NCBI GenBank assembly: GCA_024404315.1
Contig: JAKSQD010000017.1
Coordinates: 1 to 35,747 of the forward strand
Reading direction: 5' to 3'
DNA: 35,747 nucleotides
Source of the DNA: Oscillospiraceae bacterium
GTDB taxonomy: Bacteria; Bacillota; Clostridia; Oscillospirales; Oscillospiraceae
Shown here piece after piece: positions 2,904 through 34,090 of this stretch (positions within the stretch are counted from its first letter, which is position 1; the number at the start of each line of letters is the position of its first letter). The notes under the pieces were generated by a model. It had not been told where the DNA came from. It saw only the letters and a program-made list of their open reading frames with translations, and did not search any database. Position numbers and translations under genes: made by a program.

Positions 2904-2921
2904 GTCTCAGCAGATCGCCGC

Positions 2922-4634: not shown

Positions 4635-4676
4635 AAAAAATTCCGTCAGAGGAGAAAAACTCATCCTCTGACGGAA
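4635..4676 (-). terminator. Intrinsic terminator of the amylosucrase gene
   Basis: A perfect 13-bp stem (4641-4653 with 4664-4676) and 10-base loop. Read on the minus strand it is followed by six Ts (4640-4635). It is the first terminator after the amylosucrase stop, with the MITE-like element lying between them. Confidence 0.88.
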
Positions 4677-4687
4677 AAAAGAAGCGT

Positions 4688-4855
4688 TTAAGGCAATACC
4701 GCATAATAGGGATGTGCGGATTGCGCAGGAATTTTGCTTCCAAATTTGTTGGGAAAGCCGCAGGAACACTGACGTATTTCAAGGGTTTTACGGCAAATTT
4801 GGGAGTGAAAGGACAAGCAAGGCGCACATTCGACGATTGTGCGGTGTTGCCTTAA
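4688..4855. mobile_element. MITE-like element, 168 bp
   Basis: The ends are TTAAGGCAATACCGCATAAT (4688-4707) and, inverted at 4836-4855, a copy matching at 18 of 20 positions; the two differences are both transitions. A subterminal pair ATGTGCG (4712-4718) and CGCACAT (4823-4829) adds to the inverted symmetry. Both ends carry TTAA, which could be a 4-bp target duplication. No transposase fits inside, so it would be moved in trans. It sits between the amylosucrase stop codon and that gene's terminator. Confidence 0.72.
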
Positions 4856-4890
4856 CAAAAATTCAGAGAAAAAACAGTGGTTTTCCGCTC

Positions 4891-6744
4891 TTAACCCTTG
4901 TACAGCAGCCACACAAAGCCGTAGGCAGGCAGCTCCCAAGTGCCGGTGATGTTGACCTCTTCTCCCGTGACCAGGTCCACATGCTTGCCGTAAGCCTCCA
5001 GGAAAGCGGTGTGGGGGTTCTCGGAGAAGTTATACACAGCGGTGAAAACCTTGCCGTTGAGCTCTCGCTTCAGACCCAGCAGGTTTTCGTGACCGGCCCA
5101 GAAGGTCCACAGGTTGGCATCTGCGCCGAAGACGGGGTGTTCCCGGCGGATGCTCTCCAGGGTTTGCAGTCCCTGGAACAGCTTGCCCTGACGGGTGGCG
5201 GTGTCGTTTCGGTTTTCAGCCTCGCCCCACAGGAAGTTACCACGGTGCAGATAACGGCTGTCCTCGCACTTGTTGGGATCCTGATGATAGGTGTAGTCGT
5301 TGAGCTGGCCGATTTCGTCGCCTGCATACAGGATGGGAAGACCCGTCTGACCCAGCAGGAAGGCGTGAAGCATCAGGTCGAAGTCCGTGGCCAGCTCCAG
5401 CTTGTGAGCGTCACCGGCGGTTTCGGCGGACTCAATGCCCAGCAGGGAAGCAGTGGTGCCGCACAGGCGGGCATCACCCAGGCGGGGATCATCGTTGTAC
5501 AGCTCACCCCGGGCGTAAGAGGGAATCTTGTTGGTGAAGAAATCGTTCAGATACTTCTTGTGGGGAACCTCCTGCTGGTTGAAGTTCCAAGCCAGCCAGG
5601 GGTAATCCAGACCCCAGCCGATGTCATCGTGACAGCGGATGTAGTTCAGGAAAATGTATTCCTTGGGGAGGTTGTTCACCTGATCCATCTGGTGGCGCAG
5701 CAGGCGGGTGTCACGGGTGGCAACGGTGCTCCACATGGTGCACATCGTGGTGGCGTTGTAGAGCATGTGACACTCGGGCTTGTCCACGGGGCCGAAGTAG
5801 GGAGCCAGCTTCTCGGGAGCCATGACCACCTCGCCCAGCAGGATGGTACCGGGGCAGACGACCTCACAGATCATGCGGCACATGCGGACAATGGTGTGAA
5901 CCTGGGGCAGGTTGCGGCAGTCAGTGCCCAGCTCCTTCCAGATATAAGGAACAGCGTCAATACGAACAATGTCGATGCCCTGATTGGACAGGAACATCAT
6001 GTTAGCGGCCATCTCGTTAAAAACCACAGGGTTGCGGTAGTTCAAATCCCACTGATAGGGATAGAAGGAGGTGAGGACGATTTTCTGAGCGTCCTCCAGC
6101 CAAGTGAAGTTGCCGGGAGCGGTGGTGGGGAAGACCTGGGGAACATACTTCTCGTACTCGTTGGGCACATCCCAATTGTCATAGAAGAAGTAACGATCCT
6201 GATATTCCTTCTCACCGGCACGGGCACGCTTGGCCCATTCGTGATCCTCGCTGGTGTGGTTCATCACGAAGTCCATGCAGCAGGAAATTCCACGGGCGTG
6301 GCAGTCAGCGGTCAGCTCCTGGAGGTCTTCCATTGTGCCCAGCTCGGGCTTGATTTTGCGGAAGTCGGCCACGGCATAGCCGCCGTCACTGCGGCCATCC
6401 ACAGTGTCCAGCAGGGGCATGAAGTGCAGGTAGTTGACGTTGCATTCCTGAATGTAGTCCAGCTTGCTCTGAACGCCCTTCAGGGTTCCGGCAAAGGGCT
6501 TGACATAGAGGCACATACCCAGCAGGTCATTGGCCTTGTACCAGCCAATGTTGCTTTCCCGGTTGCGATCCAGCTCCTTCAGGCTCTCGTTTCGTCCCTG
6601 ATAGAAGCCTTCCATCTGTGCCAGCAGGTCGTCAAAGGCTGCCTGACGCTCGTCCATGGACAGATGATCGTACAGCTCAAAGTAAAGCCATTTCAACTCA
6701 TCGTAATGACGAGACAGACGGTTTTTGTATTCGTTGTTCGGCAT
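4891..6744 (-). CDS. Amylosucrase-type glycoside hydrolase (GH13 subfamily 4)
   Basis: Amylosucrases split sucrose, add the glucosyl unit to an alpha-1,4-glucan and release fructose; close relatives are sucrose hydrolases. The protein has 617 residues and no signal peptide, so it should be cytoplasmic. The N-terminal helical region (1-70) precedes a TIM barrel. The nucleophile is Asp263 in RIDAVPYIWKELG, the acid/base Glu305 in LLGEVV, and the transition-state Asp373 in YIRCHDDIGWGLDYP. The last motif and the block FTWLEDAQKIVLTSFYPYQWD are typical of this subfamily. The C-terminal beta domain is about 545-617. Ribosome binding site GAGGTG lies about 9 nt from the ATG. It lies downstream of fructokinase on the same strand, fitting use of the released fructose. 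Polymerase versus hydrolase activity cannot be decided from sequence. Confidence 0.88.
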   Translation of the reverse strand: MPNNEYKNRLSRHYDELKWLYFELYDHLSMDERQAAFDDLLAQMEGFYQGRNESLKELDRNRESNIGWYKANDLLGMCLYVKPFAGTLKGVQSKLDYIQECNVNYLHFMPLLDTVDGRSDGGYAVADFRKIKPELGTMEDLQELTADCHARGISCCMDFVMNHTSEDHEWAKRARAGEKEYQDRYFFYDNWDVPNEYEKYVPQVFPTTAPGNFTWLEDAQKIVLTSFYPYQWDLNYRNPVVFNEMAANMMFLSNQGIDIVRIDAVPYIWKELGTDCRNLPQVHTIVRMCRMICEVVCPGTILLGEVVMAPEKLAPYFGPVDKPECHMLYNATTMCTMWSTVATRDTRLLRHQMDQVNNLPKEYIFLNYIRCHDDIGWGLDYPWLAWNFNQQEVPHKKYLNDFFTNKIPSYARGELYNDDPRLGDARLCGTTASLLGIESAETAGDAHKLELATDFDLMLHAFLLGQTGLPILYAGDEIGQLNDYTYHQDPNKCEDSRYLHRGNFLWGEAENRNDTATRQGKLFQGLQTLESIRREHPVFGADANLWTFWAGHENLLGLKRELNGKVFTAVYNFSENPHTAFLEAYGKHVDLVTGEEVNITGTWELPAYGFVWLLYKG

Positions 6745-7078
6745 AATGACACCTCAGATTTGAAATTCGGAATTCGGAGTTCGGAGTTTAGAAGCATCCA
6801 AACCCCGAACCCGATATCAGATCAGATTTACCTGGTGGGGACTCAGGAGAAAGTCTCCAAAGTCCCATGTGTTTGTTTGGTGTTCGTATCAAAGTGGGCT
6901 GGTGTATCTTTTCACCTCTCCGACTCCTTTCAGCCTGTTAGGGGAGGTATTTTCTCTCCTACCATACAAACGCAAAAGGGGGGAGGTTGGCTCCCCTAGC
7001 AGGGGAGCTGTCAGCGAAGCTGACTGAGGGGTGATTCCAGTCGATAACAACCCACTTTCCTACTATCACCATTTGTTT
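6745..7078. other. 334-base intergenic region between amylosucrase and fructokinase
   Basis: No gene. Next to the amylosucrase start are four tandem heptamers, ATTCGGA, ATTCGGA, GTTCGGA and GTTTAGA (6765-6792). Then comes a two-part hairpin (GGGACT/AGTCCC 6838-6843 with 6861-6866, inner GGAGA/TCTCC 6846-6850 with 6854-6858), then the hairpin repeat at 6913-7033. No clear minus-strand promoter or T-tract terminator was found, so amylosucrase may be read through from fructokinase. Confidence 0.6.
6913..7033. repeat. Short interspersed hairpin repeat (MITE-like), about 121 bp
   Basis: The ends CACCTCTCCG (6913-6922) and CTGAGGGGTG (7024-7033) are inverted at 8 of 10 positions. Inside are perfect hairpins CTCCCCT/AGGGGAG (6991-6997 with 7001-7007) and GTCAGC/GCTGAC (7010-7015 with 7019-7024). 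Sequences of this style, with a GTCAGC hairpin next to a CTCCCC hairpin, are recalled as frequent intergenic repeats in gut Clostridia, but copy number cannot be checked here. Confidence 0.6.
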
Positions 7079-8041
7079 TTACTGCTTTGCCAGCAGCTCC
7101 AGCACTTCCTCACGGGTGGGCACGCTGGAGATACCGCCGAAGCGGGTAGCGGAGAGGGAAGCGGTGGCGCAGGCCAGCTTGACGATGTTCAGCAGCTCGT
7201 CACCCTCCAGCTCCTCGGGAGCGGCGGAAGCACGCAGAACCTCACGGACAGCAGTGCCGCCGAAGATATCGCCAGCGCCGGTGGTGTCCACAATCTTGGG
7301 CAGGCAATTCAGCTTGCCGCCGCAGACAGAACCCTTCTTGTTGATGGCCAGGGAGCCGTCAGGACCGAGGGTGACAAAGGCCAGCTTGATGTCAAAGTCC
7401 TTCATCAGCTTGGCGGCGCCCTCAGCGGGGGTGCAGCCGAACAGGAATTCCACCTCGTTGTCAGAGATCTTCACCACGTCGCACTGCTCCAGACCCCACA
7501 GAATCTGCTTCTTGGCCTCTTCCAGGTCGTCCCACAGGGGCTCACGCAGGTTGGGGTCAAAGGTAATCAGCTTGCCCTGAGCCTTTGCGTAAGCAACGGC
7601 CTTCTGGGTGCAGGTGCGGGCGGGCTCGCCGGTCAGGGAGAGGGTGCCGAAGTGGAAAGCACGGCTGTTGTCGATGATGGACAGATCCAGCTCCTCAAAG
7701 GAGAGCTGGGTATCAGCGCCGGGCTTACGGGCGAAGGAGAACTCACGGTCGCCGGTCTCGTCCAGGGTGACGAAGGCCAGGGTGGTGAAGTAGTTGGGAT
7801 CCAGAATCAGAGCGCTGGTGTCGATTCCGGCATTTTTCACGGTAGCGGAGAGCAGCTTGCCGAAGGCATCGTCGCCGACCTTGCCCATGAAGGCAGCCTT
7901 GCCGCCCAGCATGTTCACAGCGGCCAGGAAGTTGGCGGGAGCGCCGCCGGGATGAGCGGCCATGGTGGGATAGCCGTCTGCGTCCGTGCTGACGGGAGCA
8001 AAGTCGATGAGCAGTTCACCCATTGCAGTGATGTCGAACAT
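7079..8041 (-). CDS. scrK: PfkB-family fructokinase
   Basis: Phosphorylates a sugar, most likely fructose, with ATP to give fructose-6-phosphate. With the start at 8039-8041 the protein has 320 residues beginning MFDITAMGELLIDF. That start has GAGGT 8 nt upstream, whereas an in-frame ATG at 8086 would place this site inside the gene and would lie at the promoter. Ribokinase-family features are the N-terminal GGAPANFLAAVNMLGG (about 32-47) and the C-terminal ATP/catalytic motif DTTGAGDIFGG with its catalytic Asp. GELLIDF and FDPNLREPLW are typical of the fructokinase branch. The neighbouring amylosucrase releases fructose, which supports this substrate; other PfkB sugar kinases cannot be fully excluded. 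It is controlled by a promoter whose start region carries a cre/LacI-type operator. Confidence 0.88.
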   Translation of the reverse strand: MFDITAMGELLIDFAPVSTDADGYPTMAAHPGGAPANFLAAVNMLGGKAAFMGKVGDDAFGKLLSATVKNAGIDTSALILDPNYFTTLAFVTLDETGDREFSFARKPGADTQLSFEELDLSIIDNSRAFHFGTLSLTGEPARTCTQKAVAYAKAQGKLITFDPNLREPLWDDLEEAKKQILWGLEQCDVVKISDNEVEFLFGCTPAEGAAKLMKDFDIKLAFVTLGPDGSLAINKKGSVCGGKLNCLPKIVDTTGAGDIFGGTAVREVLRASAAPEELEGDELLNIVKLACATASLSATRFGGISSVPTREEVLELLAKQ

Positions 8042-8071
8042 AAGATTTACCTCGTTTCTTTCATGAAATTT

Positions 8072-8085
8072 TGTAAACGGTTTCA
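8072..8085. promoter_or_regulatory. cre-like / LacI-family operator at fructokinase promoter
   Basis: TGTAAACGGTTTCA matches the catabolite-responsive element core TGNAARCGNWWWCA at every position. It lies just after the -10 box of the fructokinase promoter, so a bound regulator (CcpA, or a sucrose or fructose LacI-type repressor) would block initiation. Confidence 0.7.
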
Positions 8086-8095
8086 CACTGGATAT

Positions 8096-8124
8096 ATGAT
8101 ACTAAATTTTGATGAAAATTGCAA
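8096..8124 (-). promoter_or_regulatory. sigma-A promoter of fructokinase
   Basis: Minus strand TTGCAA (8119-8124), 17 bp, TATCAT (8096-8101). Upstream of it is a perfect 12-bp palindrome TTTCCATGGAAA (8140-8151) that lies between this promoter and the divergent rpiB promoter. Confidence 0.7.
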
Positions 8125-8181
8125 GAGGAATTCCACGCTTTTCCATGGAAAGACCAAGGAGAAAAAACTTCTGTCAACCTC

Positions 8182-8210
8182 TTTACAGAAATGGAGCGGC
8201 GTAGTATAAT
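8182..8210 (+). promoter_or_regulatory. sigma-A promoter of rpiB
   Basis: TTTACA (8182-8187), 17 bp, TATAAT (8205-8210); a 5/6 match at -35 and perfect at -10. It is divergent from the fructokinase promoter 58 bp away. Confidence 0.8.
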
Positions 8211-8268
8211 TCTTTCAGATAGTCCCCTAAAAAAGGGAAAAATGAAATTTATAAGGAGTATTCTTGAC

Positions 8269-8739
8269 ATGAAAATCGGATTTGGAAGCGATCACGCCGC
8301 TCTTGGCCTGAAGAACGTTCTGTTGGACTACCTGAAGGAAAAAGGATATGAGTGCGTAGATTTCGGCGCTTACAGCCCGGAGGAAAAGGTGGATTATCCC
8401 GTTCCTGGACGTGCCGTGGCAGAGGCCATTCGCCGTGGCGATATCGACAAGGGCGTTTTGGTGTGCGGAACCGGCGTGGGCATCTCCCTGGCCGCCAACA
8501 AGGTTCCCGGCATCCGTGCCGGTGTTTGCAGCGAGCCTTTCACCGCCAAAATGATTGCCGAGCATAACAACTGCCAGATTGTCGCTATGGGCGAGCGTGT
8601 GGTTGGCGTGGAGCTGGCCAAGATGATTGTAGACGCTTTCTTCGGCGCTGAGTTCCAGGGTGGCCGTCATGCCCGCCGTGTTGGCCTCATCGGCAAGGTG
8701 GAGGAAGATTACGGTTATGCAGATGCACCCGTTCGCTAA
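8269..8739 (+). CDS. rpiB: Ribose-5-phosphate isomerase B
   Basis: Interconverts ribose-5-phosphate and ribulose-5-phosphate in the pentose phosphate pathway. It has 156 residues, slightly above the usual 145-150. The start ATG at 8269 has AAGGAG 12 nt upstream; longer readings upstream lack a site and cross the promoter. RpiB/LacAB signatures are GSDHAALGLK near the N-terminus, the active-site cysteine in VCGTGVGISLAANK, and EHNNCQIVAMGERVVG. It is monocistronic between its own promoter and terminator. LacA/LacB galactose-6-phosphate isomerase subunits are related, but they come as adjacent pairs, and a single gene favours RpiB. Confidence 0.93.
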   Translation: MKIGFGSDHAALGLKNVLLDYLKEKGYECVDFGAYSPEEKVDYPVPGRAVAEAIRRGDIDKGVLVCGTGVGISLAANKVPGIRAGVCSEPFTAKMIAEHNNCQIVAMGERVVGVELAKMIVDAFFGAEFQGGRHARRVGLIGKVEEDYGYADAPVR

Positions 8740-8786
8740 CGGAACCGAAAAGCCTCGTTTGATTTTAAAATAAGAGTCTGAAATAA

Positions 8787-8837
8787 GGGTCTGAAAGGTG
8801 GTTTCATGAAAGCTGCTTTTCAGGCTCTTTTGTTTTT
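8787..8837 (+). terminator. Intrinsic terminator of rpiB
   Basis: A long stem of about 18 pairs including several G-U pairs, starting at GGGTCTGAAA (8787) and closing with TTTTCAGGCTC (8827), is followed by TTTTGTTTTT. Confidence 0.75.
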
Positions 8838-8940
8838 CGCCCTTGCTCGCTGTTTTTTTCAAAATCCCACAAAAAAGAGGCTTACTTTTGCTATAGTTCT
8901 GTAAAAAGTGAAAATTCCAGCATTTTTTGCGATGGAAATA

Positions 8941-8969
8941 TTGACTTTGCCCCGCTAAAACGATATAGT
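8941..8969 (+). promoter_or_regulatory. sigma-A promoter of potABCD
   Basis: TTGACT (8941-8946), 17 bp, TATAGT (8964-8969); 5/6 at both boxes. Transcription would start near 8976. Confidence 0.8.
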
Positions 8970-9072
8970 GTGTAATGGTTGCCCGGGTGAAATTTGAGAC
9001 TTTCCCGGGTAAATCGGGCAGGCTCCGGGAAAAATTGAGAAAGGTCTGGAGCTGTAGTGAGGAGGATGATAA

Positions 9073-10113
9073 ATGTCCAAGGAACTGATTCGTCTGACCA
9101 ACGTGTCAATGGTGTTTGACGAGAATACTGTTGTTCTTGACAACATCAATCTGTATTTTAACGATGCAGAGTTTTTGACGCTGCTGGGTCCTTCAGGATG
9201 TGGCAAGACGACCACTCTGCGGATCATCGGAGGCTTCCAGAAGCCCACGTCCGGTGATGTCTTTTTTGACGGGGTACGCATCAATGACGTACCTCCCTAC
9301 AAGCGACAGATTAACACTGTGTTCCAAAAATACGCCCTGTTCACCCATATGAACATCTATGATAACGTGGCGTTTGGAATGCGTATCTCCAAAACCCCAG
9401 AAGCGGACATCCGCAGACGGGTGGACGAGGCGCTGAACATGGTCAACCTGTCCGGCTTCGAGAAACGAAGCGTGAACGCTCTTTCCGGCGGTCAGCAGCA
9501 GCGTGTTGCGATTGCCCGAGCCATTGTCAACCGACCCAAGGTTCTCCTGCTGGATGAGCCGCTGGGTGCGCTGGATTTGAAGCTGCGAAAAGAAATGCAG
9601 ACCGAGCTGAAAAAAATCCAGCAGCAGGTGGGTATCACCTTTGTTTACGTCACACACGACCAGGAAGAGGCGCTCACCATGTCTGACACCATCGTCGTCA
9701 TGAATGAGGGTCGTATCCAGCAAATTGGAACTCCCATTGATATCTATAACGAACCGAAAAACGCATTTGTCGCAAATTTCATCGGCGAGAGCAACATCAT
9801 CTCCGGTGTCATGGAGCGGGACTACTGCGTCCGCTTCGCCGGACGGGAATTTGCCTGCACCGACAAGGGCTTTGCTGCCAAGGAAGCCGTTGACATTGTG
9901 GTTCGTCCCGAAGACCTGATGATCTCTGAGCCTGCCAACGGCCAGATGGTCGGCAAGGTGGACAGCGTGGTCTTTAAGGGCATCTTCTATGAGGTTATGG
10001 TGGAAAGCCAGGACTTCCGCTGGAAGGTTCAGACCACCCGTGCGCCGCAAAAGGGTCAGTTGATTGGCCTGAGCGTTGACCCGGATAACATTCAGGTTAT
10101 GCACAAACGCTGA
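9073..10113 (+). CDS. potA: Spermidine/putrescine ABC transporter ATP-binding protein
   Basis: ATPase that powers polyamine import through PotBC. It has 346 residues. Walker A is GPSGCGKT (39-46), the ABC signature LSGGQ (137-141), Walker B VLLLDEP (157-163) with Glu162, and the switch His195 in THDQEEA. The C-terminal region about 240-345 is the regulatory TOBE-type beta domain common to this importer class. A GAGGAGG site precedes the ATG. It is first in a four-gene operon potABCD with 11-bp spacing to potB. PotA assignment over other type-I importer ATPases rests on the neighbouring PotB, PotC and PotD. Confidence 0.95.
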   Translation: MSKELIRLTNVSMVFDENTVVLDNINLYFNDAEFLTLLGPSGCGKTTTLRIIGGFQKPTSGDVFFDGVRINDVPPYKRQINTVFQKYALFTHMNIYDNVAFGMRISKTPEADIRRRVDEALNMVNLSGFEKRSVNALSGGQQQRVAIARAIVNRPKVLLLDEPLGALDLKLRKEMQTELKKIQQQVGITFVYVTHDQEEALTMSDTIVVMNEGRIQQIGTPIDIYNEPKNAFVANFIGESNIISGVMERDYCVRFAGREFACTDKGFAAKEAVDIVVRPEDLMISEPANGQMVGKVDSVVFKGIFYEVMVESQDFRWKVQTTRAPQKGQLIGLSVDPDNIQVMHKR

Positions 10114-10124
10114 GGGAACGGCCT

Positions 10125-10973
10125 ATGAAAAAGAAATACCTGGCAGTCCCTTATGTGGTCTGGATGGCCGTGTTTGTCATCGTGCCCCTGGTGCTGGTGC
10201 TGCTCTACGCTCTGGGCAGCCGTGACGGCTCCTTCACGCTGGATAACTTCCGCACCATGACGCAGTATTGGGGCGTGTTTGCCTCGTCCTTTCAGCTGGC
10301 GTTGATTGCTACGGCGGTGTGCCTGCTGATTGGCTACCCCGTTTCTTACTGGCTCAGTCGGGAAGGCCCCGGCATCAAGCGCATTGCCATGATTGCCATC
10401 ATGCTTCCCATGTGGATGAACTTCCTGCTGCGTACCTACGCCTGGATGAGTATTTTGGAAAATACCGGAATTATCAATACCGTCCTGGGCAATCTGGGCT
10501 TTTTTGAGCTTTTCAACGGAGTCTTTGGCACAAACCTGAAATATTTCCCCATGATTAACACCCCCGGAGCGGTGGTTCTGGGCATGGTTTATAACTACCT
10601 GCCCTTCATGATTCTGCCCATTTACACCGTCATTGATAAAATTGACCCCAAGGTCATCGAGGCGGCGGAAGATCTGGGCGCTAACTCAATACAAGTGTTC
10701 TGGAAGATTATCTTCCCCCTGAGCCTGCCTGGTGTTCTGTCCGGTGTGGCGATGGTGTTTATCCCCGCCGTGTCCACCTTTGCCATCTCCAAGCTGCTGG
10801 GCGGCGGCATGACCATGCTGCTGGGCGACCTGATTGAGATGCAGTTCTACGGCAGCGCCTATAACCCCTATCTGGGCAGCGCCATTTCCCTTGTTATGAT
10901 GGTGATTGTCCTCATCTGCATGACCATTATCAACCGCTTTGGGGAAGGAGAAGGGGAGGCGATGTACTTTTGA
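10125..10973 (+). CDS. potB: Spermidine/putrescine ABC transporter permease PotB
   Basis: One of two membrane subunits of the polyamine importer. It has 282 residues with about six membrane helices. The EAA loop that docks on PotA reads EAAEDLGANSIQVFWKIIFP, around residues 184-203. A short hydrophobic N-terminus, YVVWMAVFVIVPLVLVLLYA, is typical of PotB. GAGGGAA precedes the ATG. The stop overlaps the potC start by 4 bp (TTGA), indicating translational coupling. Confidence 0.95.
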   Translation: MKKKYLAVPYVVWMAVFVIVPLVLVLLYALGSRDGSFTLDNFRTMTQYWGVFASSFQLALIATAVCLLIGYPVSYWLSREGPGIKRIAMIAIMLPMWMNFLLRTYAWMSILENTGIINTVLGNLGFFELFNGVFGTNLKYFPMINTPGAVVLGMVYNYLPFMILPIYTVIDKIDPKVIEAAEDLGANSIQVFWKIIFPLSLPGVLSGVAMVFIPAVSTFAISKLLGGGMTMLLGDLIEMQFYGSAYNPYLGSAISLVMMVIVLICMTIINRFGEGEGEAMYF

Positions 10974-11827
10974 AGAAGAATCATCTGCTGGAGCGCCTGG
11001 GTTTGCTGCTGACGATGCTCTTTCTTTACGCTCCCATCGCTGTGCTCATCACCTTTTCCTTCAATGGGTCGAAGAGCCGAACCCTGTGGACGGGCTTCTC
11101 TCTGAAATGGTATACCGAGCTGTTTGGGGATAAGCGCATCCTCTCCGCCTTGGCCACCACCTTAGAGGTTTCCGTCCTGGCCATGGTGATTTCCACCATT
11201 CTGGGAACCGCCGCCGCCATCGGCTTTTTCAACATGAAGAAAAAGCCCCGTGCTATCCTCATGGCCATCAATAACATCCCCATGACCAATGCGGATATCA
11301 TCACCGGTGTCAGCCTGATGCTGCTGTTTGTTTTCTCTCTGGGAGCCTTCAATGCTACCCTGGGCAGTGTTCTGGGCGTGGAACTCAAGCTGGGCTTTGG
11401 TACGCTGCTGCTGGCTCACGTCACCTTTGATATCCCTTATGTCATCCTTTCCGTTCTGCCCAAGCTGAACCAATGTGACCCAAACATTGAGGAAGCGGCG
11501 GAAGATCTCGGTGCCACTCCCTGGCAGGCGTTTGTCAAGGTGGTTCTGCCAGAGATTCAGCCCGGCGTGGTCAATGGCGCTATCATGGCCTTTACCATGT
11601 CCATTGATGACTTCGTGATTTCCTACTTCACCGCAGGCTCCGGCTGCTCCACCCTGGCGATGGAAATTTACTCCATGACCCGCAAGCGCATCAGCCCGGA
11701 AATCAACGCCCTGTCCACTCTGATGTTTGTGGTGGTGCTCACCCTGCTGGCTGTTGTCAATATCCGTTCCGCTCGTGAAGAAAAGGCGGCTCAGAAGCGG
11801 GAAGCTACGCTCAAGCGGAAAAACTAA
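10970..11827 (+). CDS. potC: Spermidine/putrescine ABC transporter permease PotC
   Basis: Second membrane subunit of the polyamine importer. It has 285 residues and about six membrane helices. Its EAA loop is EAAEDLGATPWQAFVKVVLP at about 175-194. The start is a TTG at 10970, chosen because GGGGAGG lies 10 nt upstream, it overlaps the potB stop in a TTGA junction, and the reading MKKNHLLERLGLLL is a normal PotC N-terminus. There is no ATG in frame before conserved sequence begins. Confidence 0.94.
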   Translation: MKKNHLLERLGLLLTMLFLYAPIAVLITFSFNGSKSRTLWTGFSLKWYTELFGDKRILSALATTLEVSVLAMVISTILGTAAAIGFFNMKKKPRAILMAINNIPMTNADIITGVSLMLLFVFSLGAFNATLGSVLGVELKLGFGTLLLAHVTFDIPYVILSVLPKLNQCDPNIEEAAEDLGATPWQAFVKVVLPEIQPGVVNGAIMAFTMSIDDFVISYFTAGSGCSTLAMEIYSMTRKRISPEINALSTLMFVVVLTLLAVVNIRSAREEKAAQKREATLKRKN

Positions 11828-28237: not shown

Positions 28238-28291
28238 TCAACCTAGCGTAACCCATACGCCCACAGAAAACCGATCTCATCAACCAGATCG

Positions 28292-28460
28292 TTTGCAGGT
28301 GTCTGTCGAAGGACAGGTGAAAAGGGAATCCAGTGAAAATCTGGAACGATGCCGTCACTGTGAAAGGGGAGCCGCTCTCAGCAGAAGCTTCTGCACCACT
28401 GGCCGAAGGGCTGGGAAGGGAGAACCGGCGAGGAACCAAGTCAGGAGACCTGCCTGCAAA
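28292..28460 (+). ncRNA. Cobalamin riboswitch
   Basis: The outer helix P1 is closed by TTTGCAGG (28292-28299) and CCTGCAAA (28453-28460). In order the element shows AAAGGGAATCCAGTGAAAA, the GCCGTCACTGTGAA core, CCACTGG, GGGAAGG, and the terminal B12 box AAGTCAGGAGACCTGCC. This order and these motifs are those of cobalamin-binding leaders. It senses adenosyl- or methylcobalamin-type ligands and normally shuts off expression when they are abundant. It precedes the chelatase lipoprotein and importer genes and so gives the best clue to their substrate. Confidence 0.93.
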
Positions 28461-28538
28461 TTTTCATTCGCTGAACGGAATGAAATGAAATGTCAGATTT
28501 GCGGTCCACAAATCTATCTTTCTCAAAAGCAAACACCA

Positions 28539-28638
28539 CTCCTTTCGAAGAAAAGAATGCTGTTCCTCACGCTTTTGAAGAGTAATCGACACTTCAGAAA
28601 ACGGGAGGAGACAGGATTCTGGAAACAATCGAAAGGAG
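28539..28638 (+). promoter_or_regulatory. Anti-Shine-Dalgarno stem downstream of the riboswitch
   Basis: CTCCTTTCGA (28539-28548) is perfectly complementary over 10 bp to TCGAAAGGAG (28629-28638), the ribosome binding site of the chelatase gene. Pairing would hide that site, so this is a likely translational off-state of the riboswitch. Confidence 0.55.
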
Positions 28639-28644
28639 CTTTTT

Positions 28645-30288
28645 ATGAACCTCATCAACCTCAAAAAGCTGACCGCCCTGGTGCTGGCTATGGCAATGTC
28701 CCTGGCCATGCTCACCGGCTGCGACAGCCAGAAGACCGCAGAGGAGCCTGCTGCCTCTGTATCCAACTCTGATTCCGCCGATGCGTCCGCCTCTGCGGAG
28801 GTGTCCGCCCCCGTGGACGATCAGGCCGCCGCTGACGAATGCGCCGCCCTCATTGATGCCATCTATGTGCAGCAGCGCACCGATGACACCGACGCCCAGT
28901 GCGAAGCCGCCAAAGCCGCTTGGGATGCACTGACCGATGCCCAGAAGGAGCTGGTGGAGGGCGAGAACGCCGACCCCGATTATTTTGGACGTGATACCGG
29001 CGACGCTTCCAAGGACAACTCCCGCAACCAGGACGATATTGGGGAGAAAGAAATCCTTGTCACCAGCTTTGGCACCTCCTTTAATGACAGCCGTGTCGAG
29101 GATATCTCCGGCATTGAGGAGGCCATCCAGCAGGCCAATCCTGATTGGTCTGTCCGCCGTGCCTTCACCGCTCAGATTATCATCAACCACGTTCAGGCTC
29201 GTGAAGGTGAGAAGATTGACAACATGGAGCAGGCTCTGGAGCGTGCCGTAGCCAACGGCGTGAAGGAGCTGGTGGTTCAGCCCACCCATCTGATGCACGG
29301 CGCAGAGTATGACGAGCTGTGCGAGGCGCTGGAACAGTACGTCGGTCAGATTGATACCATCAAGATTGCCGAGCCTCTGCTGGGCGAGGTGGGCAGTGAT
29401 GCTACGGTTATCAACGCTGACAAGGCCGCTGTAGCCGAGGCCGTCACCGCCGCCGCCGTTGCCAATACCTCCTATGAAACCGTAGATGCCGCCGCTGAGG
29501 ATGGCACTGCCTTTGTCTTCATGGGTCATGGTACTTCCCATACCGCTAAGGTTTCCTATTCTCAGATGCAGACCCAGATGAACGAGCTGGGATACAAAAA
29601 CGTTTTCATTGGCACGGTGGAGGGCGAGCCCGAGGAGACCGCCTGTGAGAACGTCATTGAGGCTGTGGCCGAGGCCGGTTATACCAAGGTTGTGCTCCGT
29701 CCCCTGATGGTGGTTGCAGGCGACCACGCCAACAACGATATGGCCGGTGAGGAAGAGGACTCTTGGAGCTCTCAGTTCTCCGCCTCTGGCAAGTTTGAGA
29801 GCGTTGACAGCCAGATTGAGGGTTTGGGTCGCATCCCTGCTGTTCAGGAGCTGTATGTGGCTCACACCGCTGCGGCCATGGCTTCCGAGGCCGTGTTTGC
29901 CTCCGACGTTGCTACCGCTGCTCTAGCCGACGGTGTTTATACCGCTGACTTCAACACCGATTCCGGCATGTTCCATGCCAACGAAGCCTGCGACGGCAAG
30001 GGTACCCTCACCGTGCAGGATGGCGCTATGACCTTCCATGTCTCTCTCGTCTCCAAAAAGATTATGAATCTCTATGTGGGCAAGGCCGAGGAGGCTCAGA
30101 AGGAGGGCGCAGAGCTGCTCCAGCCTACCACCGATACCGTAACCTATTCGGACGGTACCTCTGAGGAAGTGTTTGGATTTGACATTCCCGTGGCCGCTGT
30201 GGATGCAGACTTTGACCTGGCACTGATTGGTGAAAAGGGTGTCTGGTACGACCATGTGGTGAGCGTCTCCAACCCGGTCGCTCAGTAA
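28645..30288 (+). CDS. Exported lipoprotein with CbiK-type cobaltochelatase domain and C-terminal NEAT-like domain
   Basis: It has 547 residues. The signal peptide ends in a lipobox (LTGC, Cys26). An Ala/Ser/Asp-rich linker leads to a short helical module (about 62-112, including AWDALTDAQKELV) of a type seen in clostridial surface proteins. Residues about 135-405 match the anaerobic chelatase CbiK: ILVTSFGTSFNDSR, GHGT with His295, TVEGEPEE with Glu326 and GDHANNDMAG with His361. These are the two His and one Glu that bind metal in the family. Residues about 428-545 form a beta domain that resembles the next gene's product and NEAT domains in pattern. The known role of CbiK is cytoplasmic cobalt insertion; a lipid-anchored version outside the cell cannot serve ordinary cobalamin synthesis, so capture or remodelling of a metallo-tetrapyrrole or cobalt is inferred. 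It is controlled by a cobalamin riboswitch. Confidence 0.82.
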   Translation: MNLINLKKLTALVLAMAMSLAMLTGCDSQKTAEEPAASVSNSDSADASASAEVSAPVDDQAAADECAALIDAIYVQQRTDDTDAQCEAAKAAWDALTDAQKELVEGENADPDYFGRDTGDASKDNSRNQDDIGEKEILVTSFGTSFNDSRVEDISGIEEAIQQANPDWSVRRAFTAQIIINHVQAREGEKIDNMEQALERAVANGVKELVVQPTHLMHGAEYDELCEALEQYVGQIDTIKIAEPLLGEVGSDATVINADKAAVAEAVTAAAVANTSYETVDAAAEDGTAFVFMGHGTSHTAKVSYSQMQTQMNELGYKNVFIGTVEGEPEETACENVIEAVAEAGYTKVVLRPLMVVAGDHANNDMAGEEEDSWSSQFSASGKFESVDSQIEGLGRIPAVQELYVAHTAAAMASEAVFASDVATAALADGVYTADFNTDSGMFHANEACDGKGTLTVQDGAMTFHVSLVSKKIMNLYVGKAEEAQKEGAELLQPTTDTVTYSDGTSEEVFGFDIPVAAVDADFDLALIGEKGVWYDHVVSVSNPVAQ

Positions 30289-30340
30289 TCCCAAGAGAAG
30301 CGGAGAGGAAAAACGCCTTTCCATTACACGCATCAACACG

Positions 30341-30374
30341 CAGAGCGAGGCTTTCCCGGCTTCGCTCTGTTTTT
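30341..30374 (+). terminator. Internal terminator after the chelatase lipoprotein gene
   Basis: Stem CAGAGCGA with TCGCTCTG (30341-30348, 30362-30369), then five Ts (30370-30374). It lies inside the operon, 19 bp before the next ATG, and no new promoter is visible, so partial read-through is expected. Confidence 0.85.
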
Positions 30375-30393
30375 ACCAAAAGGAAGGAACAGC

Positions 30394-30801
30394 ATGAAAA
30401 AAAAGAGTCTTCTTTTCTTGCTGGCGCTGGTGGTTATGCTGGCGCTGGTTTCCTGTCAAAACAGTCCCACTCAGAGCTTGCATGACGACAGCTATACGGC
30501 GGAAGTGACCTTGAGCGGCGGAACGGGACGGGCTTCGGTGCAGTCCCCTGCCGTGCTGACGGTCAAGGACGGAGCGTTCACGGCGGAGCTGGTGTGGAGC
30601 AGCAGCAAGTATGATTACATGGTGATAGACGGGGAGAAATACCTCCCCACGACCTTGGAGCCTGGCTCTACTTTTGTCATTCCCGTGGAGGCGCTGGATC
30701 TGGAACTGAACGTTACCGCCGACACCACCGCCATGAGTGAGCCGCACGAAATTGACTACACGCTGCGGTTTGATTCGTCCACCTTAAAGGAGCAGAAATG
30801 A
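30394..30801 (+). CDS. Small lipoprotein with a NEAT-like beta domain
   Basis: It has 135 residues. The signal peptide has a lipobox LVSC (Cys21). The mature part (about 30-132) is one predicted beta-sandwich-like domain: SYTAEVTLSGG, then a middle block VLTVKDGAFTAELVWSSS, then FVIPVEALDLELNVTAD and IDYTLRFD. It aligns by eye with the C-terminal domain of the preceding chelatase protein (VYTADFNTD, GTLTVQDGAMTFHVSLVS, FGFDIPVAAVDADFDLALIG), so the two are probably paralogous. The strand pattern recalls NEAT haem-binding domains, but this is not proven. AAGGAAGG precedes the ATG; the stop overlaps the next start (ATGA). A ligand-relay role between chelatase and binding protein is an inference. 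Confidence 0.7.
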   Translation: MKKKSLLFLLALVVMLALVSCQNSPTQSLHDDSYTAEVTLSGGTGRASVQSPAVLTVKDGAFTAELVWSSSKYDYMVIDGEKYLPTTLEPGSTFVIPVEALDLELNVTADTTAMSEPHEIDYTLRFDSSTLKEQK

Positions 30802-31934
30802 AACAGTGGATACTTTGTGTGCTGGCGGCGCTGCTGCTGACCGGCTGCGGGAGTGTGACCGCTTCTCAGGAGGCGACGGAGGGGCCGCAGTGGGAGACGC
30901 TGACGGCGGAAGGTCAGATGGAATTGCAATATGCCGAACAGTTTGAAGTGGAATATTACACGGAGGGCTACCGGAAAATCACCATTTCTGACGTGGGGGA
31001 CTATCTGATTGTTCCCGAAGGAGCGGACATTCCCGCCAACCTCCCGAAGAATCTCACGCCCCTGTGTCAGCCGCTGGATGAGCTGTATCTGGTGTCCACC
31101 TCCGCCATGGATTTTTTTCGGGAGCTGGACGGACTTGGTTCCATTGCCTTCTCCGGTACGGACGCTGACGGCTGGTACATTGAGGAGGCAGCACAAGCGC
31201 TGCAAAACGGTTCCATCCGCTATGCCGGAAAGTACAGCGCTCCCGACTATGAGAGTCTTTTGGAGGGCGGCTGTGACCTCGCCATTGAGAACACCATGAT
31301 TTTCCACACCCCTGACGTGAAAGAGAAGCTGGAAGGGCTGGGTATTCCCGTTTTGGTGGAGCGTTCCAGCTATGAGAGTCACCCCTTGGGTCGAATGGAG
31401 TGGGTGAAGCTGTACGGCGTGCTTTTGGGCAAGGAGGAAGCGGCGGAAAAAGCCTTTGACAGCCGCATTTCTCAGCTTTCCGACGCTTTGGGGCAGGAAG
31501 CAACCAACCAGACCGTTGCATTTTTTTACATCAACGGCATCGGAGCGGCCAACGTCCGCAAATCCGGCGACTATGTGGCCAAGATGATTGACATAGCCGG
31601 GGGAAGCTACATCTTTCAAAATCTGGGAGACGAAACCGCCCTTTCCACGATGACGATGGACATGGAGAGCTTTTATGCTGGCGCAAAGGAGGCTGATTCC
31701 ATCATCTATAACAGCACCATTGACGGCGAGCTGCAAACCATGGAGCAGCTTTTGGAAAAAAGTCCGCTTTTGGCCGATTTCAAAGCGGTGCGGGAGGGAA
31801 AGGTCTGGTGTACGGAACAAAGCATGTTCCAGCAAACGATGTGTATCGGTGATATGATTTTGGATTTCCACCGCATTTTGACGGAGGAGGCTCCGGCGGA
31901 TGAGGAGCTTTTGTACCTCCATCGCCTGCGGTGA
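30798..31934 (+). CDS. ABC transporter substrate-binding lipoprotein, BtuF/FecB type
   Basis: Receptor of a type-II importer for large chelates such as cobalamin, haem or siderophores. It has 378 residues; the lipobox is LTGC (Cys17). The body is the class III bilobed fold with a long linking helix: ITISDVGDYLIVPEG, LDELYLVSTSAMDFFRELDG, GGCDLAIENTMIFHTPDVKEKLEGLGIPVLVE, and a C-terminal lobe from about 215. AAAGGAG precedes the ATG, which overlaps the upstream stop by 4 bp. The riboswitch upstream favours a corrinoid substrate; the sequence alone would not distinguish iron chelates. Confidence 0.87.
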   Translation: MKQWILCVLAALLLTGCGSVTASQEATEGPQWETLTAEGQMELQYAEQFEVEYYTEGYRKITISDVGDYLIVPEGADIPANLPKNLTPLCQPLDELYLVSTSAMDFFRELDGLGSIAFSGTDADGWYIEEAAQALQNGSIRYAGKYSAPDYESLLEGGCDLAIENTMIFHTPDVKEKLEGLGIPVLVERSSYESHPLGRMEWVKLYGVLLGKEEAAEKAFDSRISQLSDALGQEATNQTVAFFYINGIGAANVRKSGDYVAKMIDIAGGSYIFQNLGDETALSTMTMDMESFYAGAKEADSIIYNSTIDGELQTMEQLLEKSPLLADFKAVREGKVWCTEQSMFQQTMCIGDMILDFHRILTEEAPADEELLYLHRLR

Positions 31935-31946
31935 TAGGAGCTTGTC

Positions 31947-32963
31947 ATGAAACGACTGCGTGTTCCGCTGGCCTTTGGACTGCTGGTGGTGTTGCTGATT
32001 TTTTTGGTGGTGTTGAATACCTGCGTAGGCACGGTGGCGCTGCGTCCCAACGAGGTGTGGCAGATCATCACCTGGACGGGGGCAGACATTGACCCCACCG
32101 CCATACAGATTATCTGGTTCATTCGCCTGCCCCGTTTGATGTCGGCGGCGGTGCTGGGGGGCGCACTGGCGGTGTCTGGTCTGCTGTTACAGACCTTTTT
32201 TGCCAATCCCATTGCGGGTCCGTTTGTGCTGGGCATCTCCTCGGGGGCGAAGCTGGCGGTGGCGCTCACCATGATTTTTCTCTTGGGGAAAGGTGTGGTC
32301 ATTGGCTCCTGGGCCATGATTGCCGCCGCCTTTTTGGGTGCGATGCTCTCAATGGGGTTTATCCTTCTGCTCTCGGGACGGGTGCGGAATATGTCCCTGC
32401 TGGTGGTGGGCGGCGTGATGGTGGGGTATATCTGCTCCTCGGTTACGGATATTCTGGTGACGTTTGCGGATGATTCCAACATTGTCAATCTGCATAACTG
32501 GGCGCTGGGCAGCTTTTCCGGTGCCAGCTGGGGGGATGTCCGAGTGATGCAGGTGGTGGTGAAAGCGGCTTTCCTGGGGGCGCTGCTGCTGTCCAAGCCC
32601 ATGAGCGCCTATCAGCTGGGGGAGGGCTATGCCCAAAATATGGGGGTCAACGTGAAGCGGCTCCGGGTGGAGCTGATTTTGCTGTCAAGCCTGCTTTCGG
32701 CCTGCGTGACTGCCTTTGCCGGCCCCATTTCCTTTGTGGGCATCGCCGTGCCCCACCTGATGAAGAGCCTGTTCAAGACCTCTAAAACGCTCGTGCTTCT
32801 GCCAGCCTGCTATCTGGGCGGGGCGGTGTTCTGTCTCTTCTGTGACCTGCTGGCTCGGATTTTGTTTGCACCCACCGAATTGAGCATCAGCTCTGTCACC
32901 GCCGTATTCGGTGCGCCGGTGGTGCTGTGGATGATGGTGCGTCGAAAGGGGGCACGGGCATGA
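31947..32963 (+). CDS. FecCD/BtuC-type ABC transporter permease
   Basis: Membrane subunit of the importer. It has 338 residues with about ten hydrophobic helices. Family blocks are IRLPRLMSAAVLGGALAVSG, NPIAGPFVLGISSGAKLAVA near residues 90-115, and FAGPISFVGIAVPHLMKSLF near the end, the cytoplasmic coupling region. TAGGAG precedes the ATG. The stop codon overlaps the ATPase start (ATGA). It lies directly between its binding protein and ATPase. Confidence 0.93.
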   Translation: MKRLRVPLAFGLLVVLLIFLVVLNTCVGTVALRPNEVWQIITWTGADIDPTAIQIIWFIRLPRLMSAAVLGGALAVSGLLLQTFFANPIAGPFVLGISSGAKLAVALTMIFLLGKGVVIGSWAMIAAAFLGAMLSMGFILLLSGRVRNMSLLVVGGVMVGYICSSVTDILVTFADDSNIVNLHNWALGSFSGASWGDVRVMQVVVKAAFLGALLLSKPMSAYQLGEGYAQNMGVNVKRLRVELILLSSLLSACVTAFAGPISFVGIAVPHLMKSLFKTSKTLVLLPACYLGGAVFCLFCDLLARILFAPTELSISSVTAVFGAPVVLWMMVRRKGARA

Positions 32964-34090
32964 AAGCGGTGGAAAAGCTCCGCACGGAGCACCTTACGGT
33001 GGGCTACAACAAAACCCCCCTCTTGACTGATATCCAAATTTCCGTGAAACCGGGACAAATTCTCACCCTCATCGGGCCGAACGGCGCAGGAAAATCCACC
33101 ATTTTAAAGAGCATCGCCGCCCAGCTTGCGCTGGTGAGCGGAACGGTCTATCTGGACAAAGATGACCTGGGACGTATGCGCCCTCAAGAGCTGGCGAAAA
33201 AGATGTCCTTGGTGCTGACCCAGCGCATCCAGCCGGAGCTGATGACCTGTTTTGATGTGGTGGCCTCTGGACGCTATCCCTATACCGGGCGGCTGGGATT
33301 GCTCAGTCAGCAGGATAAAGAGGTGGTGCGCCGTTCCTTGGCCTATGTCCACGCCGAGGAGCTGGCGGAGCGGGACTTTCCGTGCATCAGCGATGGCCAG
33401 CGCCAAAGGGTGATGCTGGCTCGGGCGCTTTGCCAGGAACCGGAAATCATCGTGCTCGACGAGCCAACCTCTTTTTTGGACATTCGCCACAAGCTGGAAT
33501 TGCTTTCCCTGCTGAAGCGTTTGGCGCTGGAACAAAATCTGACGGTGGTCATGTCCCTGCATGAGCTGGACTTGGCGCAGAAAATTTCTGATAGGGTGGT
33601 CTGTGTTCATCCGTCTGGGATTCAGCGCTGCGGTACGCCGGAAGAGGTCTTCACAGCGGATGATATCCAAAGCCTCTATGGAGTGGAGGCGGGGCATTAT
33701 GAGCCCATGTTTGGCAGTTTGGAGCTGCCGAGCAGTACTGGCGTGCCAAGGGTGTTTGTCATCGGCGGCGGCGGCGCTGGGATTCCGGTTTACCGACAGT
33801 TGAACCGAATGGGGGTTCCCTTTACGGCTGGCGTGCTGCACGAAAACGATGTGGATTATGCCGTCGCCAAGGCGCTGGCGGCAAAAGTGATTGCCGAGCA
33901 GCCCTTTGAGCCAATCGGTCAGGAGAACATCAGGGCGGCGCTGGACATCCTGCGGCGCTGTGAAGCGGTTCTCTGTCCGCTGTCCGGTTTTGGCAGCATG
34001 AACGCCGGAAACCGCACGCTTTTGGAAGAAGCGGAGCGGCTGGGTCTGCTGAAACAAGGTGTGCATGAAATAAAGTTGATTATTGGGTAG
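32960..34090 (+). CDS. ABC importer ATPase (BtuD/FecE type) with extra C-terminal Rossmann-like domain
   Basis: It has 376 residues. The N-terminal 255 are a normal importer ATPase: Walker A GPNGAGKST (39-47), signature ISDGQ in place of LSGGQ as often seen in this class, Walker B IIVLDEPTSFLD, and switch His in SLHELDL. The C-terminal 110 residues are extra. They begin VPRVFVIGGGGAGIPVYRQL, a glycine-rich nucleotide-binding-like loop, and continue GVLHENDVDYAVAKALAAKV and LCPLSGFGSMNAGNR. Similar extensions are recalled in other clostridial corrinoid or iron ATPases, with no known function. The start at 32960 is chosen for AAAGGGGG upstream and the ATGA overlap with the permease; a reading from 32927 lies inside the permease. 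Confidence 0.88.
   Translation: MKAVEKLRTEHLTVGYNKTPLLTDIQISVKPGQILTLIGPNGAGKSTILKSIAAQLALVSGTVYLDKDDLGRMRPQELAKKMSLVLTQRIQPELMTCFDVVASGRYPYTGRLGLLSQQDKEVVRRSLAYVHAEELAERDFPCISDGQRQRVMLARALCQEPEIIVLDEPTSFLDIRHKLELLSLLKRLALEQNLTVVMSLHELDLAQKISDRVVCVHPSGIQRCGTPEEVFTADDIQSLYGVEAGHYEPMFGSLELPSSTGVPRVFVIGGGGAGIPVYRQLNRMGVPFTAGVLHENDVDYAVAKALAAKVIAEQPFEPIGQENIRAALDILRRCEAVLCPLSGFGSMNAGNRTLLEEAERLGLLKQGVHEIKLIIG

What the first reader, a model, noticed from the sequence alone, without database searches (positions are those of the whole stretch)
28292..34090. Cobalamin-riboswitch operon for a surface chelatase, NEAT-like lipoproteins and an unusual ABC importer
Seen: a full cobalamin riboswitch, then a lipoprotein with a CbiK-type domain keeping both His and the Glu metal ligands, a small lipoprotein sharing that protein's C-terminal domain, a BtuF/FecB-type binding lipoprotein, a FecCD permease and an ATPase with an extra domain. 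Established: CbiK inserts cobalt into sirohydrochlorin in the cytoplasm; cobalamin riboswitches repress corrinoid synthesis and import genes; some periplasmic CbiK relatives are known in Desulfovibrio. Inferred: three lipid-anchored proteins and an importer form a capture-and-uptake pathway in which the exported chelatase domain binds, loads or strips a metallo-tetrapyrrole or cobalt before import. No other cobalamin synthesis gene is in the window.
Basis: partly seen in the sequence, partly recalled or inferred. Interest (0 to 1): 0.85.

Follow-up and report, generated by a model that had tools for sequence, protein, structure and literature searches.

The report
Surface chelatase importer feeding B12 synthesis
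A vitamin-B12-controlled set of genes in a gut-type bacterium appears to put a cobalt-inserting enzyme and its helpers on the cell surface and import what they catch; some related bacteria that seem unable to build the early ring of B12 keep this version as their only such enzyme, which could explain how they still make the vitamin.

Summary
A full cobalamin riboswitch precedes an exported CbiK lipoprotein with the Glu/His/His site, a NEAT-like lipoprotein, a binding protein, a FecCD permease and an extended ATPase. It recurs: of the 80 loci kept from a search with the small domain, 73 have CbiK, 72 of these visibly exported, and 66 have the riboswitch in front. In 150 family genomes the NEAT-like domain is in 24 of 53 with the corrin-ring gene cbiD and 2 of 97 without, although 64 of those 97 carry B12 riboswitches: a poor fit to a plain B12 importer. 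Of 33 genomes with the system, 18 lack both HemB and uroporphyrinogen methyltransferase yet keep cbiD; in all 18 the only CbiK is the exported one. The ATPase is fused to CbiD or CbiP in 10 of 80 loci. Best reading: surface capture, probably cobalt loading, of an early corrin precursor (sirohydrochlorin type) for B12 synthesis. Substrate and catalysis are inferred.

The parts
28280..28471 (+). Cobalamin riboswitch aptamer (RF00174)
   Evidence: cmscan 107.4 bits, model 1-189 of 189; only one found in the genome
28539..28547 (+). Possible anti-Shine-Dalgarno stretch, exactly complementary to 28630-28638; would give translational control
   Evidence: exact 9-base match (11 of 100 shuffles of the whole window hold two or more copies); paired in the predicted fold of 28472-28650, z -3.57
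28630..28638 (+). Shine-Dalgarno-like stretch of the CbiK lipoprotein gene
   Evidence: sequence
28645..30288 (+). Exported lipoprotein: lipobox (Cys26, read by eye), N-terminal region, CbiK domain (29047-29880), C-terminal NEAT-like domain (29890-30285)
   Evidence: ORF, PF06180 E 1e-65, nearest solved 9b86, 1qgo, 2xvx, conserved Glu/His/His, NEAT-like domain
30394..30801 (+). Small NEAT-like lipoprotein (Cys21, read by eye)
   Evidence: ORF; PF05031 weak in itself (E 0.04-0.07); 55 of 62 family members hit it at E<=1
30798..31934 (+). Substrate-binding lipoprotein (Cys17, read by eye), IsdE/Lmo2184-like
   Evidence: PF01497 E 5e-28; family profile vs PDB: Lmo2184 4e-9, 4ovk 6e-4, IsdE 0.007; NCBIfam IsdE in 18 of 30 members, the trimmed window protein not among them
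31947..32963 (+). FecCD/BtuC-type permease
   Evidence: PF01032 E 2e-78; best NCBIfam BtuC PRK03784, 208 of 334 bits needed
32927..34090 (+). ABC ATPase; likely start ATG 32960; C-terminal extra domain 33737-34087
   Evidence: PF00005 E 1e-27; best NCBIfam PRK09536 corrinoid ATPase, 214 of 537 bits; extra domain in 47 of 80 loci

Best explanation
A cobalamin-repressed surface system that captures an early cobalamin-pathway tetrapyrrole (sirohydrochlorin, its cobalt form or a close neighbour such as cobalt-factor III) and imports it to feed the cell's own corrin-ring enzymes. Proposed steps: when B12 is short the riboswitch lets the operon be made (aptamer shown; control inferred). The lipid-anchored CbiK domain binds the tetrapyrrole and probably inserts cobalt outside the cell (conserved site shown; catalysis inferred). 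The two NEAT-like domains pass it to an IsdE-like lipoprotein (homology shown, remote; relay inferred), and the FecCD-type importer brings it in (family shown; substrate inferred). In relatives that have lost HemB and the uroporphyrinogen methyltransferase, this would be the only route found to a metallated precursor. In the window's own genome, which keeps early genes and a cytosolic CbiK, it would be a cost-saving supplement.
For: (1) Distribution: NEAT-like domain A1 in 24 of 53 CbiD+ and 2 of 97 CbiD- family genomes, p=4e-11; among riboswitch-bearing genomes 22 of 50 vs 2 of 64. Five of the 26 A1 genomes rest on weak matches under 50 bits (G057, G065, G101, G127, G139). (2) In 33 genomes with the exported CbiK and NEAT-like domain (34 searched; G134 has neither): all have CbiD; 18 lack HemB and over-cut-off SUMT; each of the 18 has exactly one CbiK, whose frame length matches the exported one of its locus in 18 of 18; CbiX hits all fall in CbiK genes. 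Of the 15 with HemB, 13 also have a cytosolic CbiK. One of the 18 is a complete chromosome (L109/G169). (3) Family set, CbiD+ genomes (it shares 5 genomes with set 2): exported CbiK in 15 of 20 HemB- vs 8 of 33 HemB+; cytosolic CbiK in 4 of 20 vs 27 of 33. (4) ATPase in one frame with CbiD in 9 of 80 loci, one clade (Pfam in 9 of 9), and with CbiP in 1; two more CbiD fusions in the family set, G033 and G080 (same frame). cbi/cob genes beside the operon in 37 of 80. In Faecalibacterium the exported cbiK and importer head a run of cbi and cob genes. (5) Glu/His/His in 96, 95 and 95 of 96 exported domains. (6) The binding protein's profile is nearest to haem-type binders and no BtuF model was hit. 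(7) Another importer sits beside an exported CbiK and cbi genes in a HemB- genome (G003, L058).
Against: No binding, transport or chelation was measured. Of the 18 HemB-/SUMT- genomes 11 have no CbiL over cut-off and 10 no good candidate: there either a post-CbiL compound is imported or the pathway is broken. The window's own genome has HemB, SUMT, CbiL and a cytosolic CbiK, so it should not need the system. The association is clustered: 3 changes of HemB on the permease tree, only 1 independent pair on well-supported branches and 3 in all. Exceptions in the family set: G068 and G128 (CbiD+, HemB-) have only a cytosolic CbiK, G128 being a single contig; G113 and G127 have both; G103 and G144 none; G081 truncated; G033 and G085 have HemB but only an exported CbiK. 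Four loci have the NEAT-like gene without CbiK and no contig edge near (L117, L120, L127, L136); L110 ends 1.8 kb upstream; L076 and L084 are cut. G046 has exported CbiK, NEAT-like and binding protein but no permease or ATPase was found on that contig. HemA/L, HemC, HemD and SirC were not searched in the 18. The best family names of permease and ATPase are cobalamin transporters, though under cut-off.
Confidence: 0.6

Rival explanations
1. It is a cobalamin or cobinamide importer (BtuFCD kind) whose exported CbiK and NEAT-like parts simply bind finished corrinoids at the surface, as BtuG/BtuH/BtuJ do in Bacteroides.
For: Cobalamin riboswitch; permease and ATPase score best against BtuC and the corrinoid ATPase PRK09536; surface B12-binding lipoproteins are an established strategy in Bacteroides (PMC12751083, passages).
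Against: A B12 importer should be common in genomes that cannot make the corrin ring; the NEAT-like domain is in 2 of 64 riboswitch-bearing CbiD- genomes but 22 of 50 CbiD+ ones. ATPase fused to CbiD or CbiP. Binding protein nearest to Lmo2184/IsdE. Does not explain why the exported CbiK is the only CbiK in 18 of 18 HemB- genomes.
Confidence: 0.2
2. It is a cobalt-acquisition system: the exported chelatase fixes scarce cobalt in a scavenged tetrapyrrole and the cell takes up the complex mainly for its metal.
For: CbiK metal site conserved; the CbiD+ lean also fits a need for cobalt where the corrin ring is made; a NiCo riboswitch with a cation-efflux-like gene lies upstream of one operon (L066).
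Against: Does not account for the absence of HemB and SUMT in 18 of 33 genomes that keep CbiD: those cells need the ring, not only the metal. The NiCo riboswitch stands directly before the efflux-like gene, not the operon.
Confidence: 0.1
3. It is a haem or iron uptake system of the Isd/Hup/Iht kind; the riboswitch is incidental.
For: NEAT-like domains, IsdE-like binding protein; nearest solved structure is titled haem-binding protein FetB; IhtB of P. gingivalis is thought to act on haem (PMC10913741, passages).
Against: Cobalamin riboswitch in front of the exported CbiK in 66 of 80 loci, confirmed by covariance model in 9 of 9 loci checked; linkage and fusion to cbi/cob genes in 37 and 10 of 80. 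No iron-control site was searched for.
Confidence: 0.07

Closest known systems
IhtABCDE of Porphyromonas gingivalis (IhtB, a CbiK-like surface lipoprotein)
   Same: Lipoprotein with CbiK homology plus binding protein, permease and ATPase (PMC10913741, passages). P. gingivalis also lacks the steps to precorrin-2 (PMC6461909, passage), and IhtB is said not to be regulated by PgFur (PMC10913741).
   Different: Has a TonB receptor; assigned to haem and iron. No Iht sequence was compared here beyond the FetB entry among the PDB hits; that FetB and IhtB are the same protein, and whether a riboswitch or NEAT-like part is there, were not tested.
CbiK, sirohydrochlorin cobaltochelatase (solved: 1qgo, 2xvx)
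   Same: Same domain and Glu/His/His site; a second, exported CbiK in Desulfovibrio is recalled (Lobo 2008 seen only as a reference title).
   Different: Lipid-anchored or, in one relative, S-layer type; fused to NEAT-like domains; in a riboswitch-led operon with an importer; under the curated CbiK cut-off (180 of 400 bits).
Isd/Hup haem uptake of Gram-positive bacteria
   Same: NEAT-like domains, IsdE-like binding protein, FecCD importer.
   Different: Behind a cobalamin riboswitch, with a chelatase, and linked to cbi genes; NEAT and IsdE similarity is under cut-off.
Tetrapyrrole precursor salvagers (Shelton et al. 2018, PMC6461909)
   Same: Organisms with corrin genes but missing early tetrapyrrole genes, primarily Firmicutes (section 13); a precorrin-2 class is cited as 0.6% (PMC8123684, passage).
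   Different: That is a metabolic class; in the passages and section seen no transporter for the late precursors is named. The operon would be one.
BtuFCD with BtuG/BtuH/BtuJ surface lipoproteins of Bacteroides
   Same: B12-regulated operons, surface lipoproteins plus ABC importer (PMC12751083, passages).
   Different: The words CbiK, chelatase and NEAT do not occur in the three papers searched for them.

Membership tests
Cobalamin riboswitch RF00174 | Score over Rfam gathering cut-off, full model | tested here: met
   107.4 vs 31.5 bits, 1-189 of 189
Cobalamin riboswitch RF00174 | Control of the downstream gene by B12 | not testable with these tools
   only an anti-SD/SD pairing is predicted
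CbiK cobaltochelatase | CbiK domain over Pfam cut-off | tested here: met
   222 vs 26.2 bits
CbiK cobaltochelatase | Metal-ligand Glu and two His | tested here: met
   present in window; 96, 95, 95 of 96 exported domains; roles of these residues recalled
CbiK cobaltochelatase | NCBIfam equivalog cut-off for SiroCoChCbiK | tested here: not met
   179.8 of 400 bits; the genome's own cytosolic CbiK also fails it, 288.4 of 400
CbiK cobaltochelatase | Cobalt insertion into sirohydrochlorin | not testable with these tools
   needs the purified protein
NEAT domain PF05031 | Score over Pfam cut-off | tested here: not met
   best seen 30.8 vs 32.8 bits, a two-domain relative (L047); window small protein 14 bits
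NEAT domain PF05031 | Remote homology by profile or fold | tested here: inconclusive
   55 of 62 and 33 of 44 members hit it at E<=1; PDB hits include iron-transport-associated and IsdA entries at E 0.001-0.24, among unrelated ones; no fold available
BtuFCD cobalamin importer | FecCD permease and ABC ATPase | tested here: met
BtuFCD cobalamin importer | BtuF-like binding protein | tested here: not met
   no BtuF model among the six NCBIfam families hit at E<=0.01; IsdE in 18 of 30 members; PDB profile Lmo2184, 4ovk, IsdE
Isd/Hup haem uptake | IsdE-type binding protein over NCBIfam cut-off | tested here: not met
   window 15.9 of 298.65 bits
Tetrapyrrole precursor salvager | Corrin genes present, early genes absent | tested here: not met
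   window genome has HemB, SUMT, HemA; of 33 genomes with the system 18 lack HemB and SUMT

The most novel reading that the evidence does not exclude
B12 synthesis with its cobalt-insertion step moved outside the cell: a surface CbiK loads cobalt into a scavenged sirohydrochlorin-type ring, NEAT-like domains and an IsdE-like protein hand it over, and a dedicated importer (in places fused to CbiD or CbiP) delivers the metallated ring to the corrin enzymes, making the operon the transport route of precorrin-2-class auxotrophs such as the Faecalibacterium, Gemmiger and Ruminococcus flavefaciens genomes seen here; the P. gingivalis Iht system may be its Gram-negative counterpart.
Probability: 0.42. 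Interest if true: 0.92.

Novelty: new variant of a known kind. Interest (0 to 1): 0.8.

Why it matters
Bacteria that keep corrin-ring genes but cannot make the ring precursor are a recognised class, primarily Firmicutes (PMC6461909), and P. gingivalis was called an enigma of B12 synthesis (title of Roper 2000, seen as a reference). If this operon imports the precursor, it names a missing transporter, makes the question testable in common gut commensals, and suggests cross-feeding of an early tetrapyrrole, not only of finished cobamides. A metaproteome study put sirohydrochlorin cobaltochelatase at 0.1-1.0% of the 238 most abundant KOs in faeces (PMC4829149, passage), which a derepressed surface protein could explain.

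Tried and rejected
Plain B12 importer: rejected as first choice because of the CbiD distribution and the IsdE-like binding protein. Haem/iron system: rejected because of riboswitch and cbi linkage. NiCo-riboswitch control of one operon (L066): it stands before a cation-efflux-like gene instead. A first reading of the L106 fusion partner as CbiA (Pfam) was changed to CbiP, cobyric acid synthase. The C-terminal domain of the ATPase stayed unexplained (the one PDB hit under 1e-3 is a designed repeat protein). Small-domain search of viral contigs: no relative. Phylogenetic control of the HemB link: few independent events, so the p-values count related genomes and overstate it.

The 34-genome set is my hand choice of 31 of those 80 loci plus G000, G046 and G134. 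Export was judged by a script rule for a lipobox or signal-like stretch, not by a trained predictor. For the conservation count 32 entries (duplicate regions, short pieces) were dropped; 152 domains remained, 148 rows after removal of identical ones and addition of the window: 96 exported, 50 cytosolic, 2 open. Riboswitch calls in the 80 loci come from a sequence profile of 16 riboswitches; the covariance model confirmed 9 of 9 positives checked and found none at cut-off in 8 loci checked because the profile had none, L073, L080, L083, L099, L045, L046, L059, L066. Gene names come from phmmer against the own genome's genes, most of which were named by NCBIfam; cobC (no match at 1e-40) and cobS (not scanned; its Faecalibacterium relative is named) were named by eye.

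Full report
What is there. The aptamer is complete (28280-28471). Between it and the first start codon an exact 9-base complement of the ribosome-binding stretch (28539-28547 against 28630-28638) pairs in the predicted fold, so translational control is plausible. The first protein is a lipoprotein with a CbiK domain; the three solved relatives found are FetB, 1qgo (anaerobic cobalt chelatase) and 2xvx (putative chelatase). Its last 130 residues and the next small lipoprotein are two divergent members of one domain family, most like NEAT domains but under Pfam's threshold. The family of the binding protein is nearest to Lmo2184 and IsdE (that Lmo2184 binds haem is recalled). Permease and ATPase lean to the BtuC and corrinoid-ATPase models, under cut-off. 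The ATPase's extra domain is widespread but unidentified.

It is a conserved, modular system. In the window's family the parts recur in different fusions: CbiK alone, doubled CbiK, CbiK plus one NEAT-like domain, a lipoprotein with two NEAT-like domains, a single 1043-residue chain carrying two CbiK and both NEAT-like domains (L050), and a CbiK chain with three S-layer (SLH) domains (L046), which places that CbiK outside the cell. A scan of the GTDB genome collection with the small domain gave at least 555 coding relatives, of which the best 80 were kept, from Gemmiger, Faecalibacterium, Blautia, Ruminococcus, Oscillibacter and others. In these 80: CbiK 73, exported 72 (the other, L074, starts at a contig end), riboswitch before the exported CbiK 66, binding protein 73, permease 71, ATPase 70, ATPase extra domain 47.

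Link to corrin synthesis. Within at most 8 kb on either side of the small domain 37 of 80 loci hold cbi or cob genes. In 10 the ATPase shares one reading frame with CbiD (9, all confirmed by Pfam) or CbiP (1). The nine are Faecalibacterium, Gemmiger and a near relative, so perhaps one event; two more CbiD fusions are in the family set (G033, G080). In Faecalibacterium (L149) the exported cbiK, NEAT-like lipoprotein, binding protein, permease and ATPase-cbiD are followed by cbiF, G, H, J, ET, A, cobT, cobS, cobC, cbiB, cobD, cbiP and cbiC (several named by NCBIfam, where a cobU also appears). The window's own genome instead has cbiP, cbiC, cytosolic cbiK, cbiL and hemA on one contig and cbiD onward on another.

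What the distribution says. In 150 genomes of the family the small domain is in 26 (five by weak matches), CbiD in 53, a cobalamin riboswitch in 114. Domain and CbiD coincide in 24 of 26; the two exceptions are drafts 90% and 67% complete and have HemB. Of 64 riboswitch-bearing genomes without CbiD only these two have the domain. A transporter of finished B12 should show the opposite lean.

What the losses say. Of 34 genomes searched whole, 33 carry the exported CbiK and the NEAT-like domain (G134 does not; G046 has no permease or ATPase on the contig seen). All 33 have CbiD. HemB is in 15 and uroporphyrinogen methyltransferase over cut-off in the same 15. The 18 without either have one CbiK each, and by frame length it is the exported one in 18 of 18. 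CbiX adds nothing: all its hits fall in the CbiK genes. Of the 15 with HemB, 13 have a cytosolic CbiK as well; G155 and G173 do not (Fisher p=2e-7). One of the 18 is a complete chromosome, so gaps do not explain all. In the family set (CbiD+ only; five genomes shared) exported CbiK is in 15 of 20 HemB- against 8 of 33 HemB+, and cytosolic CbiK in 4 of 20 against 27 of 33. Within one genus, G064 (no HemB, system present) and G143 (HemB, cytosolic CbiK, no NEAT-like domain) show the contrast directly. The caution: on the permease tree HemB changes only 3 times, giving one well-supported independent pair.

Mechanism. Cells that cannot make precorrin-2 but keep the corrin genes must take in a ring at or after that stage, unless the genes are relics. 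The exported CbiK is their only chelatase candidate found, its metal site is conserved, and its operon holds a haem-type binding protein and an importer that in places is joined to a corrin enzyme. I therefore propose surface capture, likely cobalt loading, and import of a sirohydrochlorin-type ring. Shown: gene content, export signals (by rule), conservation, linkage, fusions, co-occurrence. Inferred: substrate, order of hand-over, cobalt insertion outside, repression by B12. Unsettled: 11 of the 18 have no CbiL over cut-off; one of them, G177, has a 149-bit hit against 163 needed, so 10 lack a good candidate. In Faecalibacterium I4-1-79 cbiF follows the ATPase-cbiD gene directly, while two relatives have cbiL there. 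These may import cobalt-factor III, or their pathway may be decaying.

What is known. Precursor salvagers were defined by gene content in 2018 with ALA dependence tested in three species (PMC6461909: passages and section 13); no transporter for the later precursors is named in what I read. P. gingivalis lacks the steps to precorrin-2 (same paper), carries a CbiK-like lipoprotein IhtB with its own ABC importer, and IhtB is said not to be under PgFur (PMC10913741, passages), which would fit the same function, though it is assigned to haem. FetB is reported to insert manganese into protoporphyrin (PMC13402209, a review, passages): a precedent for metal insertion by such a protein. In defined medium F. 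prausnitzii A2-165 was the one strain of 15 that did not grow well without cobalamin (PMC7360928, passages), which fits a cell that cannot start the ring but proves no route. A 2025 rumen study notes sirohydrochlorin cobaltochelatase and BtuFCD in one contig set and reads the latter as B12 uptake (PMC12654859, passages). Ten library searches listed no paper that by title or passages seen describes this operon; the library holds open-licence papers only, so this is weak evidence of novelty.

Noticed in passing
L058 (G003) 183-11332: HemB-less, CbiD-bearing genome without the NEAT-like domain has an exported CbiK lipoprotein beside another FecCD importer and a binding protein, divergent from cbiL-D-F-G-H-J-ET: a possibly convergent version.
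   Followed up: partly
L046 6321-8204 (G029): CbiK fused to three S-layer homology domains and a NEAT-like domain; this locus and three similar-looking ones (L045, L080, L083) show no cobalamin riboswitch at Rfam cut-off.
   Followed up: partly
L149 6165-6941; L095 12406-13107; L112 12499-13200: cbiL is missing between ATPase-cbiD and cbiF in Faecalibacterium I4-1-79 but present there in two other Faecalibacterium genomes.
   Followed up: partly
L153 461-2334 and L155 4250-6255: A cytosolic-type CbiK gene directly followed by a gene with the NEAT-like domain in two genomes.
   Followed up: no
L122 5890-5969 and 6036-6214: An AdoCbl-II riboswitch on the minus strand stands back to back with the cobalamin riboswitch of the operon, cbiD lying on the minus-strand side.
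   Followed up: no
L066 11450-11521: NiCo riboswitch before a cation-efflux-like (CDF-like by eye) gene just upstream of the exported-CbiK operon.
   Followed up: partly
control genome of the genome search (Bacteroides ihuae): Rings for CbiD and CbiK but not for HemB: perhaps a Bacteroidota case of the same metabolic type.
   Followed up: no
window 33737-34087: C-terminal domain of the ATPase, found in 47 of 80 loci and in none of the 10 loci with the ATPase fused to CbiD or CbiP; no family or fold found.
   Followed up: partly
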